Of a DNA stretch of 64,000 nucleotides, positions 3,050 through 64,000 are shown one piece after another. The notes under the pieces were generated by a model. That model saw only the letters and a list, made by a program, of their open reading frames with translations, ran no database searches and had not been told where the DNA came from. The stretch is from the NCBI GenBank assembly GCA_030248225.1, contig JASANE010028973.1:23681-87680 (forward strand). The letters run 5' to 3'. The DNA is from Trileptium ribeirensis. Lineage: Eukaryota > Nematoda > Enoplea > Enoplida > Thoracostomopsidae. Position numbers and translations under genes: made by a program. The first letter of the stretch is position 1, and each line of letters opens with the position of its first letter.

Positions 3050-4330
3050 TTTGTAGTTAGTTCTTAGATTTTGAAAATCTTGATAAATTCCGTAAGTGGA
3101 ACCGACTGACAAAGTATCTAGTCTTGTACCTATTTTTCCAACAAGTGTGTCAGACTAATTCTTAAGAAATTTTGATTGGATACCTGTCCTATATTCTACT
3201 AAATCACAGTACCGAGCAATATCAGAAGAGAAACTATCAATAAACTTATCTGAACAGAAAGCTTTAATAAACCGATACTTAGGGGACCTTTCTTAAAAAT
3301 GTTTCGTAATCTTGTATCAGGAACGATATGTAGGTCACCACAGATGACGTGTCCATGAAGTTTGTAAATGAATTTGATGCGCAGGTACAGCTAATATTCC
3401 TAGCTATGCTGTCCACCTTGCAGATCGTATTTCTGTAGTTAAAAATACGAGAACAAACTGGTTTGTTATATTTGAAGGAAACAATTTAGGTTTAGTATAC
3501 TTTTTCAGATTCTTATTAATGTAAAAATTGATAGGCCAACAATCAACGATTTCAAGTTGCTTAATTATTTTATTAAGTCTTATGTCGTCAAAAATTCTAT
3601 GTTTAAAATTTACCATGTATTGAATATCCTTTTTATAATATCCAGGATTACTGAAGTTTGATTCACATCGATAATCTATTAAATCTGACAAAATATTCTT
3701 AACAGATTCAGGTAATCGGTAATTGGGGTCTGAAAGAATGTTAAGTATGATGTTTACATTCTTATTACAGCTGTTTAATACAATGTGGACTATTTTATGT
3801 TTGAAGAAAATACAGTCTTTGTTATGGGCAGAGTTCAAGTCCTTAGCAATATCTGCTACATGGTTTAGTGTACGTAGTCTTCTACCCCATCTACGTCCAC
3901 GCTTCTTTATCTTTTTTATGTGAAATTTGGGAAAACAAGAATTATTTCGAAGGTTAAAAAATGTAAATTTATTTTCGTCCATTGCTACGAACTTTTCGTT
4001 AAGACCATAAAGTAATTTACTACAAAGTCTATCTAACCAGAAGGACTCACGTGAGCGTCTGTATTTGTCACTCTCGCTCTGGAGGTCAATGCTGTCATCA
4101 ATTATTTCAATGACTTGGACTCTCACGTCCGAAGGTGAGCATATACCATTGTTGAAATGGTCAACAACGGTTATAATGTGTTTTTTTATCATTTCAGACG
4201 GCGTTTTTTATGTTCTCTGCAGCATTCTTTTAGAGATCTACTAGTTTCACCTATATGCTGTACATTACATTTGGCGCACGAAATTCAATAAATAATATTT
4301 CTAGTTTTACAATTCAAGGGAGTGTATGTC
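3050..4330 (-). mobile_element. Penelope-like element fragment with upstream GIY-YIG nuclease
   Basis: Read on the minus strand from about 4316, the translation carries a GIY-YIG nuclease start: NCKTRNIIY, then QHIGETSRSL, with two C-x-x-C cysteines (CAKC) between. A stop stands where a leucine is usual after NIIY. After a frameshift near 4195 an open frame of 262 codons (4192-3404) continues with HFNNG, RRSRESFWLDRL and YGLNE, all typical of the nuclease region of Penelope-like elements. A second frameshift near 3400 leads to SCTC and then GHVICGDLHI and RNIFKKGP. These are linker motifs that precede the reverse transcriptase in elements with the permuted order (Naiad-like). No reverse transcriptase follows below about 3050, so the copy is cut there and is dead. 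The order is seen directly; the clade name is from memory of the family. Confidence 0.7.
3404..4192 (-). pseudogene. open frame of the Penelope-like element (GIY-YIG C-terminal part and linker)
   Basis: This is the longest frame in the window (262 codons). Residues 1-70 complete the GIY-YIG region (HFNNG near residue 12, RESFWLDRL near 47, LLYGLNE near 60). A basic segment KKIKKRGRRWGRR near residues 93-105 follows, then a linker without recognised domain. The start codon is not biological, because the domain begins about 120 bp upstream in another frame. It is not a host gene: the same pattern extends across frameshifts on both sides. Confidence 0.7.
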
Positions 4331-52533: not shown

Positions 52534-52830
52534 GTAAAATTTAACCCAGCAACTCTTCTAGCGAGCGGAAACAGATCTACGGAGTAAAATTTAACCCAGC
52601 AACTCTTCTAGCGAGCGGAAACAGAGCTACGGAGTAAAATTTAACCCAGCAACTCTTCTAGCGAGCGGAAACAGAGCTAGGAGTAAAATTTAACCCAGCA
52701 ACTCTTCTAACGAGTGGAAACAGAGCTACGGAGTAAAATTTAACCCAGAAACTCTTCTAGCGAGCGGAAACAGAGCTACGAGTAAAATTTAACCCAGCAA
52801 CTCTTCTAGCGAGCGGAAACAGAGCTAGGA
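52534..52830 (+). repeat. six-copy 49-50-bp tandem repeat
   Basis: Copies start at 52534, 52584, 52634, 52683, 52733 and 52782, each beginning GTAAAATTTAACCCAGCAAC and ending CGGAAACAGAGCTA(C)GGA. Copies are 95% or more alike by eye, so the array is young. Confidence 0.95.
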
Positions 52831-54670: not shown

Positions 54671-55024
54671 TCAAAAAAATTTAACTTTCAAATCAGATTT
54701 TTTCTTCAAAAAATTTAACGTTCAAAATCTGAATTTTTTCCTCAAAAATTTTAACGTTCAAATCTGAATTTTTCCTCAAAAAATTTAACGTTCAAATCTG
54801 AATTTTTTCCTCAAAATATTTAGCGTTCAAATTTGAATTTTTTCCTCAAAAAATTTAACGTTCAAATCTGAATTTTTTCCTCAAAAAATTTAACGTTCAA
54901 ATCTGAATTTTTTCCTCAAAAAATTTAACATTGAAATCTGAAGTTTTTCCTCAAAAAATAACGTTGAAATCTGAATTTTTTCCTCAAAAAATTTAACGTT
55001 GAAATCTGAATTTTTTCCTCAAAG
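54671..55024 (+). repeat. ~35-bp tandem repeat, about ten copies
   Basis: The unit is TTTTTTCCTCAAAAAATTTAACGTTCAAATCTGAA-like, written here as two halves: a TTTTTTCCTCAAAAAATTTA half and an ACGTTCAAATCTGAA half. Copies vary by one to three bases, and one near 54955 lacks part of the A/T run. Confidence 0.95.
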
Positions 55025-57280: not shown

Positions 57281-57643
57281 TTGGAAAGTGGAATTTGGCC
57301 AGACGATTCGACAAAGTCAATCATGATTTCAATACCAAAGAAAGCAAGCATTAAATATCAAGACCACAGAACAACTAGTCTATTATGTCATTCACGCAAA
57401 GCACTACTCAAGATCATCCAGAAGAGACTGCAAAATACAATCGAACAAACTCTCGACCAATGCCAAGCTGGGTTCAGAGCTGGTCGGGGCACTGACGAAC
57501 AAGTTTGTAATCTGCGAATATTAATTTGTGAGAAGTACATCGAGTACAATATGAAGGTATTCCACAATTTTATTGATTACAAGAAAGCTTTTGACAGAGT
57601 GTGGCAATTTGGACTGTGTTGGCGAAACATGAACTTGACTTGA
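57281..57643 (+). pseudogene. reverse transcriptase fragment, fingers/palm start
   Basis: 120 codons with the first aspartate of the palm in FIDYKKAFDRVW (about residues 97-108). A frameshift follows in WQFGLCWRN. Confidence 0.8.
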
Positions 57644-61600: not shown

Positions 61601-62830
61601 GTAATTTTGGAGTCTAAATCAGTGAAATTTAAATTTTTGTGTTCAAGGGAGCAAGGGATTTGACTCGTATGTAGTATTGCTTATGTAGTTACATAAACTC
61701 TGTAAACCATTCATACCCATAAAGGAGGCAGGGGGTTACACCACTGACATGCGGACCACCCTCGTCGTTAAACGAAGCGCCCATCCCCCTCACCATCGGC
61801 AGGCTACCTAATCCTGGGAGGCCGAACGCCTCCACCCTCGACGACCAACCTACCACCCTAAGACCACGGACCTTTTATGTATGGTTGTAAACCTACAGAG
61901 GCAGGTTGTTCAGAGGCGTAGCCAGAACTGTCCGCATAAAGGGCAGGATTTGCCAAGAAAATATACGCGAACATAAATATATATGTACTTTCTGCAATGC
62001 AGCACTGGGGTTTGGTATACATGGTTCAACGGAGACACGGCACTCCATGCCGCCCTCTCTGTGTACGTAAACAGGACAAAAGATTAATGTTTCTTTCTCC
62101 ATAAAGAAGTTGGAGTCAAGTGCTTAATTGACTTCGATTGAATAAATTTTTTTATTTATTTACATATTTATATAGTATAATGCGGCGTTTACGTTATAAA
62201 GGACCCCATATGGAAGTCTTGTCCCCAATAGTCCACACCATACTATCCAGCGGTATACAGTAGTAGATAGAAAATGGCGGTTTGGCCCCCCCCACCGGTG
62301 GGCGGTGGTGGTGGTGAGTCATGTGACGGTTGAATATATGTACATAGGTGTGCAGGCATATATTGGCATACATGTCTACTTCACATATATAAATACACAT
62401 ATATAGCTTTAATTTTCGTTGATTTGATAAGCTGAAATATTAAGGTGTCTCTGTTAAAATTAATTCTTTTTAATAAAACAGAAACGCTACGTCAACTCAA
62501 CCTCATTTAATATGCATAAAACTCAGAATATTTAATTACTTGAAGCTCATTAAGTATGCAAACGCCATATGCCAAGATATCTCATTAGCTATGCACAAAA
62601 AACAGAATATTTAATTAGGTCAGTCTCATCTAATATGCAAGCACCTTATGTTCATTATTAGGAGTAGTATAGTAGGAGCAGCACGAACACAGAGGATTTG
62701 AGGATTCATTCACCTTCATTTTTCCAGAAAAATTTAAATTTTTTGTTCGTGGTAATTAGGGGTACCGGGTTGTACGGGGCAATTAGGGGAGGCTACGGGG
62801 TTGTACGGAGCTAGGCACGGGGTTGTACCA
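58690..62830. other. intergenic stretch
   Basis: A 32-bp exact duplication lies at 60410-60473. 61910 begins CAGAGGCGTAGCCAG, which resembles the terminal repeat of some hAT-type elements, but no partner end was found. The minus frame 59651-59343 (102 codons) is unmatched. Confidence 0.4.
60410..60473 (+). repeat. exact 32-bp tandem duplication
   Basis: The AGCTATGTGATCTATTTTGA... unit occurs twice without a difference (60410-60441 and 60442-60473). Confidence 0.95.
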
Positions 62831-62911
62831 TGGTGTCAGCGTGTGCCGGGTACTTGTTCCAAGGATATTATATCATGAATGTATAGCATACATATATGTA
62901 TATTGCAAGTT

Positions 62912-62970
62912 AAAACGTTTCGGCCGTACCAAGGGCTTCATCAGGCGGCTGTAGGCTACCGCTACGTTTT
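62912..62970 (-). ncRNA. type III hammerhead ribozyme
   Basis: Read on the minus strand, every part is present in order. Stem III 5' strand AAAACG (62970-62965), UA before the cleavage site (62964-62963), stem I GCGG with a 10-nt loop and CCGC (62962-62945), core CUGAUGA (62944-62938), stem II GCC/GGC with an 8-nt loop (62937-62922), core GAAA (62921-62918) and stem III 3' strand CGUUUU (62917-62912). Predicted cleavage is between 62963 and 62962. The first stem II pair is A-C in this copy. The neighbouring unit has a 4-bp GCCC/GGGC stem II instead. Self-cleavage is inferred from the fold. Confidence 0.8.
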
Positions 62971-63060
62971 TTTCTTTATTGAAGCGTGTGCCGGGTACTT
63001 GTTCCAAGGATATTATATCACGAATCTATATATATATATATATATGTATATTGCAAGTTC

Positions 63061-63096
63061 AAACGTTTCGCCCGTACCAAGGGCCTCATCAGGCGG
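63061..63096 (-). ncRNA. half hammerhead in the second repeat unit
   Basis: The minus strand has CCGC, CUGAUGA (63092-63086), a stem II with GCCC/GGGC and GAAAC, but the stem III 5' strand, cleavage site and stem I 5' strand are missing. The sequence past 63096 is unrelated. It cannot cleave alone. Confidence 0.75.
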
Positions 63097-63679
63097 AAAG
63101 GCTATTTTAGGGGGTACAGAATTCTCTTTTTATTGCAGATATCGGGGTACGTTAGGTGAAATTTAGGGGGCACAAAATAGCAAAATATTTGTAATTTTAG
63201 GAGTACACAAATGGTAAAATTACTAAAATATAGGATACAAAATGCCGCAAATATATTTTCATTTTTTAAGACAAATGAGGATTTTTTTCGACAAACACTT
63301 TGCAGGCAGCAGGATCGCACAAGGAAGGAAGGAGGGAAAGATCACAAAAAGCTATAATTTTAGGGGTACAAATATGTATTTTTGAGTTACAAACACTTTG
63401 CTGCAACATAGGGGTACGTCTAGGGGACAAAAAGGATACTGTTTACGAAAATTACTTTTGTGCAACATAGGGGTACATTACTGAAATTTAGGGGCACAAA
63501 ATAGTAAAAATGTGTAATTTTAGGGGTACACAAATGGTAAAATTACTAATTTAGGGATACAAAATGCCACAAATATGTAATTTTATGGTACATAGGTGGT
63601 AAATATATACAATCTAGGGGTACAAATGGTAAAAAATATATCATTTAGTGGTATAAACTTGCGAAAATAATGATAAAAG

Positions 63680-64000
63680 TGGTAATTTAATAGTCAAAGT
63701 GTACAAATCCGGTTATAAAAGTTAAAAAGTATGAAAATTCTGTAAAATATAATAGTGTATATTGGAAAATTTTGCGTACAAGCACAAATTTTTAACATTT
63801 TAGTCAGTTGTTTGTGATATAATTGCATATTTTTATAGCATTTTTCTCATTTAGTTAGAAAATTTTCACAAAACCACAACTTTTTTTCGATCATTTGATC
63901 ACCATTTATATGATTTTATCAAAAATATGAAGATGTTAACTGAAATTTCTCACTAAATTCACAACTGAAACGGCTTATGCTAAGAAATTTCTAACATTTT
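63680..64000. other. AT-rich non-coding end of window
   Basis: No feature recognised. Confidence 0.4.

What the first reader, a model, noticed from the sequence alone, without database searches (positions are those of the whole stretch)
62912..62970. Complete type III hammerhead ribozyme on the minus strand
All core nucleotides (CUGAUGA, GAAA, UA before the cut) and three stems are present in the right order: 6-bp stem III AAAACG/CGUUUU, 4-bp stem I GCGG/CCGC, and stem II GCC/GGC. The probability of this by chance is very low. Most hammerheads reported in animal repeats, as I recall, are type I, so a type III form in an animal repeat deserves attention.
Basis: partly seen in the sequence, partly recalled or inferred. 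Interest (0 to 1): 0.85.

Follow-up and report, generated by a model that had tools for sequence, protein, structure and literature searches.

The report
Ribozyme at ends of Maverick element
A small RNA motif of a self-cutting kind, of a type rarely reported in animal repeats, sits near both ends of a virus-like mobile DNA element, just after a gene and its likely polyadenylation signal, which suggests that the element may use RNA self-cutting to shape the ends of its own messages.

Summary
The hammerhead is real. Minus strand 62970-62912 matches Rfam's type III hammerhead over its full length (33.9 bits, E 0.0018, below the curated cut-off); a structure scan found none in 100 shuffles. The window copy has one mismatch in stem II.

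It belongs to the terminal inverted repeat (TIR) of a Maverick/Polinton/adintovirus-like element: PolB, rve integrase, NADAR, capsid-like protein. It points outwards at both ends and is the most conserved 59-nt stretch of the TIR. It follows a 110-codon gene; the predicted cut lies 8-12 nt after AATAAA at 31 of 31 places.

A diverged second type III hammerhead stands at the TIR's inner edge at the capsid end. Four of five stem pairs that differ between the two are compensated; both allow the same loop-loop pairing.

Most likely role: making or regulating mRNA 3' ends. No cleavage was measured. Host, copy number and target-site duplications stayed untested because the genome server stopped answering. 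Among papers listed by eight searches (most lists capped) none was seen to report hammerheads in Mavericks.

The parts
62912..62970 (-). type III hammerhead ribozyme, TIR type (window copy B)
   Evidence: RF00008 33.9 bits; R2 98.1 bits at 62907-62976 (this copy was among the 11 rows R2 was built from)
62962..62963 (-). predicted cut site, ...CGUA^GCGG...
   Evidence: sequence; hammerhead numbering, recalled
62964..62970 (-). stem III 5' strand, pairs with 62912-62918
62912..62918 (-). stem III 3' strand
62959..62962 (-). stem I 5' strand GCGG, pairs with 62945-62948
62945..62948 (-). stem I 3' strand CCGC
62934..62937 (-). stem II 5' strand; first pair with 62922 is an A-C mismatch in this copy
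62922..62925 (-). stem II 3' strand
62954..62956 (-). GCC of loop I, candidate loop-loop pairing with GGU of loop II (62928-62930)
   Evidence: read; the pairing is possible in all 9 distinct rows of A3 (the window copy is not one of them)
62928..62930 (-). GGU of loop II, partner of 62954-62956
62975..62980 (-). AATAAA, probable poly(A) signal, 12 nt before the predicted cut here
   Evidence: function recalled
63036..63096 (-). partial second hammerhead (copy A): core, stem II and stem III 3' strand kept, cut-site strand absent
   Evidence: D4, 93% over 61 nt; R2 38.0 bits at 63055-63133; one of 7 such half copies among 38 places
62262..62837 (-). outer part of the TIR, from the element's terminus (5'-AGTAGATAG...; 62262 is the last element base) towards the ribozyme
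63161..63657 (.). about 31/63-bp repeats inside this rearranged copy; the window, and the contig, end at 64000 before the other end of the element

Best explanation
The ribozyme is a conserved part of the terminal inverted repeat of a Maverick/Polinton/adintovirus-like element. It points outwards at both ends and lies in the 3' untranslated region of a 110-codon TIR gene, with its cut site about 11 nt after AAUAAA, where poly(A) cleavage would be expected. A diverged type III hammerhead stands at the inner TIR edge at the capsid end, downstream of the capsid-gene cluster. I think the two ribozymes form or regulate the 3' ends of element transcripts: the inner one cuts off the late (capsid) message, and the outer one cuts the TIR-gene message at its poly(A) site. 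At the capsid end both together would release a 555-609-nt RNA carrying the TIR gene. Shown: ribozyme structure by sequence, element context, orientation, selective conservation, distance to AATAAA, compensatory changes. Inferred: that it cuts, that it is transcribed, and what the cut does. My estimates: real type III hammerhead belonging to the element 0.93; 3'-end formation or regulation as the role 0.5.
For: Rfam hit and shuffle control. Four intact copies score 37.8 bits. Element identity: PolB 45% identical to the PolB of Corynactis coral adintovirus, rve 1.8e-12 and NADAR 4.4e-39, 446-aa protein whose model resembles double-jelly-roll capsid proteins, mavirus and other virophages among them, termini like Maverick AGT ends. 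Ribozyme region pi 0.0046; 16 of 1125 windows at or below its value, all overlapping it. AATAAA 8-12 nt before the cut at 31 of 31 places, 11 nt at 25. TIR gene: 12 of 15 distinct versions are 110 codons, variable sites 11/7/23 by codon position. Compensated pairs 4 of 5 and loop-loop pairing possible in all 9 distinct rows. Prophage precedent of hammerheads flanking single genes (PMC3088659 passage) and Clec2 3'-UTR hammerhead with a suggested role in poly(A) site control (PMC6155905 passage).
Against: No cleavage or transcript was seen. The predicted minimum-energy fold of the TIR ribozyme is not the hammerhead (-19.9 against -14.6 kcal/mol), and the three folds tested are not strikingly stable against shuffles (z -1.86, -0.32 and -1.11). 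Scores stay below Rfam's curated cut-off, and Rfam did not report the capsid-end ribozyme at all at E up to 0.5 in three loci that hold it (L036, L048, L039). Within the TIR family no pair covaries. In the paralogue comparison the number of pairs changed on both sides is reached by 125 of 500 shuffles. The capsid-end ribozyme has U-U at the first pair of stem II. No AATAAA lies within 60 nt before it in the 6 copies checked, only AGTAAA-like letters. Two IMG/VR relatives, held in part, carry no hammerhead. All 30 loci were found with a query that holds the ribozyme, so conservation is partly ascertained, although the parts of the same query just downstream are more variable.
Confidence: 0.6

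Rival explanations
1. Retrozyme-like role: the two hammerheads excise a roughly 0.6-kb RNA at the capsid end, or unit RNAs from tandem TIR copies, that is ligated into a circular RNA.
For: Two same-strand type III hammerheads 555-609 nt apart in 7 of 10 capsid-end copies. Tandem units with a ribozyme core in each at periods of about 148, 510 and 1034 bp. Plant LTR retrozymes use type III pairs (PMC7229834 passages).
Against: 29 of 30 fetched loci hold further TIR sequence within about 1.5 kb of the ribozyme (the exception, L008, matches the window's own type); no independent retrozyme-like unit was seen among them. The PolB end has one ribozyme only. One half of the 148-bp pair lacks the cut-site strand.
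Confidence: 0.18
2. Outward terminator or insulator: cutting transcripts that run out of the element stops read-out into the host, or keeps host read-through from making complementary TIR RNA that would trigger RNA interference.
For: Outward orientation at both ends. Nearest ribozyme 494-1115 nt before the terminus in the sources whose end was found.
Against: Does not explain the tight spacing to AATAAA or the inner ribozyme at one end only.
Confidence: 0.15
3. Selfish or relic passenger: the ribozyme was captured once and is conserved only because the TIRs are young and homogenised.
For: Copies are very similar; no covariation within the TIR family.
Against: The ribozyme is the least variable window of the TIR. 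The paralogue differs consistently at 5 pairs with 4 compensated, unexpected for decay.
Confidence: 0.1
4. Chance match or low-complexity artefact.
For: Below Rfam gathering score.
Against: 0 hits in 100 shuffles; 31 places with the cut-site strand and core, 38 with the core; paralogue with compensated stems.
Confidence: 0.01

Closest known systems
Extended type III hammerheads of toad and termite HDV-like circular RNAs, Drosophila pseudoobscura and other dipterans (PMC7936874; passages and section 3.2 read)
   Same: Type III order; the capsid-end ribozyme has a short first stem I, an internal loop with GCCA, an extra hairpin, and UGGC in loop II, i.e. the letters of the GCCR:YGGC loop pairing described there.
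   Different: Here in the DNA ends of a Maverick-like element, and the TIR ribozyme in 3'-UTR position and without the extra hairpin. The paper reports the termite genomic motifs as isolated, with no recognisable ORFs within 2 kb.
Type III hammerheads of plant LTR retrozymes (PMC7229834 passages)
   Same: Type III hammerheads in repeats of a mobile element; two per element.
   Different: Retrozymes are small non-coding retroelements spreading through circular RNA; this is a protein-coding DNA element with inverted, not direct, repeats.
Hammerheads flanking genes in prophages (PMC3088659 passages)
   Same: Same-strand hammerheads on either side of a single gene in a DNA virus-like genome.
   Different: Eukaryotic element with a poly(A)-type signal; other genes.
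Clec2 discontinuous type III hammerhead in mammalian 3' UTRs (PMC6155905 passage)
   Same: Type III hammerhead in a 3' UTR; a role in control of the polyadenylation site has been suggested.
   Different: Clec2's has a very large helix I; this one is compact and belongs to a mobile element.
Mavericks/Polintons/adintoviruses (PMC8097293 passages)
   Same: PolB of the Maverick/adintovirus kind, retroviral-type integrase, capsid-like protein, TIRs, AGT...ACT-type ends.
   Different: Vertebrate Mavericks have two gene modules on different strands; here the parts read run one way. NADAR and the TIR gene are extra to the genes named in those passages, which mention no ribozyme.

Membership tests
Hammerhead ribozyme, type III | Catalytic core CUGANGA ... 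GAA and UH before the cut | tested here: met
Hammerhead ribozyme, type III | Open stem III, closed stems I and II | tested here: met
   (by sequence; the predicted minimum-energy fold of the TIR type differs)
Hammerhead ribozyme, type III | Paired stem II including its first pair | tested here: inconclusive
   window copy A-C and capsid-end ribozyme U-U at the first pair; most TIR copies fully paired
Hammerhead ribozyme, type III | Contact between loops I and II | tested here: inconclusive
   GCC:GGY pairing possible in 9 of 9 distinct rows, only one of its three pairs varies; contact itself not tested
Hammerhead ribozyme, type III | Self-cleavage | not testable with these tools
   needs RNA
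Rfam RF00008 by its curated cut-off | 48.5 bits or more | tested here: not met
   33.9 bits in the window, 37.8 in four intact copies, capsid-end type not reported at E up to 0.5
Retrozyme | Small non-coding repeat bounded by hammerheads, independent of other elements | tested here: not met
   29 of 30 loci hold further TIR sequence near the ribozyme
Maverick/Polinton/adintovirus | Protein-primed family B DNA polymerase | tested here: met
   (relatives include a named adintovirus PolB; PF03175 is precomputed for several relatives, but was not found in this protein itself); protein priming itself is inferred from kinship
Maverick/Polinton/adintovirus | Retroviral-type integrase | tested here: met
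   PF00665 E 1.8e-12
Maverick/Polinton/adintovirus | Double-jelly-roll major capsid protein | tested here: inconclusive
   80 matches with E 0.001 or less in the viral structure library, many of the 50 shown being capsid proteins, best E 1.3e-14, but a low-confidence model, pLDDT 52; Pfam Capsid_N only E 0.096
Maverick/Polinton/adintovirus | Terminal inverted repeats | tested here: met
   same TIR in opposite orientation at PolB and capsid ends
Maverick/Polinton/adintovirus | 6-bp target-site duplications | not tested
   genome server did not answer for the other ends
Maverick/Polinton/adintovirus | Packaging ATPase and protease | not tested
   the middle of the element was not read

The most novel reading that the evidence does not exclude
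A lineage of eukaryotic double-stranded DNA virus-like elements uses a pair of self-cleaving hammerhead ribozymes, one placed at a poly(A) signal, to make the 3' ends of its messages and to release a single-gene RNA from its terminal repeat: ribozyme-made mRNA ends in a eukaryotic DNA virus.
Probability: 0.35. Interest if true: 0.9.

Novelty: new variant of a known kind. Interest (0 to 1): 0.75.

Why it matters
Hammerheads in repeats of eukaryotes are mostly type I (PMC3088659 passage; PMC7229834 passages) and in animals are tied to retroelements; this one is type III and tied to a DNA element with viral genes. It sits at a gene's likely poly(A) site, under visible selection, with a diverged partner whose stems changed in step. 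It gives a concrete, testable setting for the old question of what genomic hammerheads do, and a possible home for the orphan type III hammerheads reported in insects and HDV-like agents.

Tried and rejected
Rejected: chance; satellite or retrozyme as the main home; reading the window pair as the normal form: half copies of that kind are 7 of 38 places with the core, and in the one place of that kind where it was checked the TIR gene stops early (L044 and L007).

Led nowhere: five searches of viral contigs for relatives gave only two distinct contigs with a PolB relative, held in part, and neither has a hammerhead. Pattern scans for the ribozyme in viral and prokaryote contigs gave 0, as did a phage-record search with the capsid-like protein. 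The TIR gene gave no candidate in a word-based protein search and no Pfam family above its cut-off. The capsid-like protein gave two weak relatives and no convincing PDB sequence match (best E 0.22). A script with a fuzzy pattern timed out. A first windowed TIR comparison was spoiled by truncated copies and an empty row and was replaced. Model R1 was built with a structure shifted by two columns and was used in no search; R2 replaced it. The count of 33 of 33 counted two places twice (overlapping loci); one search gives 31 of 31. In one search the energy given for the capsid-end ribozyme's hand-drawn fold (-9.8) leaves out pairs of its minimum-energy fold (-17.8), which itself contains the three hammerhead stems.

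Full report
Observation. Rfam release 15 gives RF00008, Hammerhead_3, over the full model at exactly those coordinates: 33.9 bits, E 1.7e-5 for a 601-base stretch and 0.0018 for the window. The curated cut-off is 48.5 and nothing in the window reaches a cut-off. A scan for core, three stems and UH before the cut finds this single site in the window and none in 100 windows shuffled within 50-nt blocks. The one flaw is an A-C mismatch at the first pair of stem II.

Repeat context. The site is the second half of a 148-bp tandem pair. The first half keeps the catalytic strand but not the cut-site strand. In the window's own genome (687 Mb, 20,229 contigs, unnamed) 43 matches were listed, with 40 of 360 candidates scored, so this is a lower bound. 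Thirty loci were fetched around matches (L001 is the window itself; L022 and L025 overlap). They hold 38 distinct places with the core: 31 with the cut-site strand and 7 half copies like the window's first half. Of 21 distinct sequences around the core in the fetched loci and the window, half copies included, most have an unbroken stem II (occurrence counts there count some places twice). Intact copies in L045, L036, L048 and L039 score 37.8 bits to RF00008; another L039 copy scores 26.

The element. Open frames beside the ribozyme fall into two kinds of ends. One end has a DNA polymerase reading away from the terminus: 7,670 of 7,992 scored candidates match at E 0.001 or less. Among the 120 listed, one is named 'PolB [Corynactis coral adintovirus]' (45% identity) and others come from Actinostola, Dendronephthya, Oculina, Mytilus and Gigantopelta. 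It is followed by an rve integrase frame (E 1.8e-12). Pfam's own DNA_pol_B_2 model did not hit this polymerase, although several of its relatives carry that domain. The other end has genes reading towards the terminus: a NADAR protein (E 4.4e-39), a 206-aa and a 446-aa protein, and a 185-187-aa protein that begins with a hydrophobic stretch. The 446-aa protein gave two weak sequence relatives. Its model is poor (pLDDT 52), yet its best matches in the viral structure library include adomavirus LO7, virophage and giant-virus major capsid proteins (80 with E 0.001 or less). Both ends finish in the same sequence in inverted orientation. A terminus ending ATCTACT was found 400-1,500 nt after a ribozyme core in 15 of 21 sources; the sequence beyond it differs from source to source. 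It resembles the AGT/ACT end motif described for vertebrate Mavericks (PMC8097293 passages). On contigs C17961 and C19179 a PolB end and a capsid end lie on the same contig, ribozymes outward at both (L033 with L034, L040 with L041). I therefore call the element Maverick/Polinton/adintovirus-like. Target-site duplications, ATPase and protease were not examined.

The window's copy belongs to a rearranged subfamily. Its terminus is at 62262, and its outer TIR part matches the reference TIR over 521 of 636 positions. Upstream of the ribozyme pair it has 31/63-bp repeats, and it runs into the contig end at 64000. In L044 and L007, two views of one place that also carries the ribozyme pair, the TIR gene stops early.

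Position in the TIR. A 110-codon frame ends 71-151 nt before AATAAA in the 7 copies measured. Twelve of 15 distinct versions are 110 codons; two further views were cut short. Variable sites by codon position in the 12 are 11, 7 and 23, which speaks for a real gene. AATAAA ends 8-12 nt before the predicted cut at 31 of 31 distinct places with the cut-site strand: 11 nt at 25, 12 at 2, 10 at 2, 9 and 8 at one each; the 7 half copies have no cut-site strand and were not scored. These places are copies of one element family, so this is one conserved arrangement, not 31 independent ones. That AAUAAA directs cleavage some 10-30 nt downstream is recalled knowledge.

Selection. Aligning the 30 loci (one merged row each) to one TIR of 1,307 nt gives pi 0.0046 and gaps 0.0075 over the 59-nt ribozyme; 30-nt blocks outside it run from 0.008 to 0.25. 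Of 1,125 59-nt windows with enough coverage, 16 are at or below the ribozyme's value and all 16 overlap it, itself included. The copies were collected with a query holding the ribozyme, so this is partly ascertained; the parts of the same query just downstream have pi 0.018-0.057.

The second ribozyme. At the inner TIR edge of the capsid end there is another type III hammerhead. Of 10 copies found by an exact pattern on the oriented strand, 7 have it 555-609 nt before the TIR ribozyme's cut; one rearranged copy has 1,187 nt and two have no TIR ribozyme within 1,500 nt. R2, built from TIR copies, finds it in 11 matches with 44.8-53.1 bits, but Rfam did not report it at E up to 0.5 in three loci that hold it. 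The TIR boundary runs through its stem II loop, so the PolB end has only its 3' part. Counted on a sequence alignment of 11 rows (9 distinct), and leaving aside the outermost stem III pair (unpaired in 7 of 9), 5 of the stem pairs differ consistently between the two ribozymes. Four change on both sides and stay paired (one in stem III, two in stem I, one in stem II), and the first pair of stem II becomes U-U. The shuffle control for pairs changed on both sides is not decisive (125 of 500 reach it), nor is that for pair types (500 of 500); cells paired, cells changed on both sides and covariation score exceed all 500. With two paralogues these are few independent events. A U-U at the base of helix II also occurs in an axolotl hammerhead that cleaves weakly as a single motif (PMC7229834 passages). 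Both ribozymes can pair GCC of loop I with GGU or GGC of loop II. The capsid-end one has the short first stem, GCCR internal loop, extra hairpin and YGGC loop described for HDV-like toad and termite agents and D. pseudoobscura (PMC7936874 passages). That paper reports isolated genomic copies in termites and further ones in dipterans (section 3.2).

Against. Predicted folds of the TIR ribozyme favour another structure by about 5 kcal/mol, although loop contacts and co-transcriptional folding are not modelled; stability against shuffles is unremarkable (z -1.86 for a TIR copy, -0.32 for the window copy, -1.11 for a capsid-end copy). Within the TIR family nothing covaries. Two IMG/VR relatives at about 40% identity in PolB, held in part, have no hammerhead.

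Mechanism. Outward direction, 3'-UTR place, steady distance to AATAAA and a same-strand partner after the capsid genes fit 3'-end formation or its control best. Prophage hammerheads that flank single genes are the nearest working analogue (PMC3088659 passages), and a role in poly(A) site control has been suggested for Clec2 (PMC6155905 passage). Every step after 'the structure is there and conserved' is inference.

Literature. Eight searches of the held library were made; only searches listed all their papers, the others only the top 8-20. In these listings no title or abstract start describes hammerheads in Mavericks, Polintons or adintoviruses. Of the two papers that hold both 'hammerhead ribozyme' and 'Polinton', I read passages of PMC6431247, which tie hammerheads to Terminons and other Penelope-like elements, and did not open PMC4609113 (one mention of each). 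PMC11071296, on adintoviruses and others, mentions a ribozyme only as a hypothesis for anelloviruses and adabscoviruses in the passages seen. Subscription journals and other preprints were not searched.

Untested. Host identity, total copy number, hammerheads outside the element and target-site duplications could not be examined, because the genome server answered only.

Noticed in passing
window 57281-57643: Fragment of a reverse transcriptase (PF00078, E 1.2e-9), by eye LINE-type, i.e. the window is repeat-rich eukaryotic DNA.
   Followed up: no
window 3404-4207: 267-aa open frame on the minus strand without a Pfam match; by eye it recalls a GIY-YIG-type endonuclease end of a retroelement (recalled, untested).
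   Followed up: no
L039 3902-6680 (oriented) and L049 1-1215: Tandem arrays with periods of about 1034 and 510 bp whose units hold a TIR ribozyme core; they may be assembly artefacts or true amplification.
   Followed up: partly
L045, L033, L036 and other ends: A 110-codon TIR gene with no homologue found by a word-based search and no Pfam family; being in the TIR it occurs at both ends.
   Followed up: partly
L036 8434-8970 minus: NADAR-domain gene carried by the element next to the capsid genes.
   Followed up: no
window 52534-52827 and 54674-55023: Two minisatellites of 50-bp (about 6 copies) and 35-bp (about 10 copies) units.
   Followed up: no
L036 6301-8886 (oriented): Gypsy-like protease and reverse-transcriptase frames just outside the capsid end (named by eye).
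   Followed up: no
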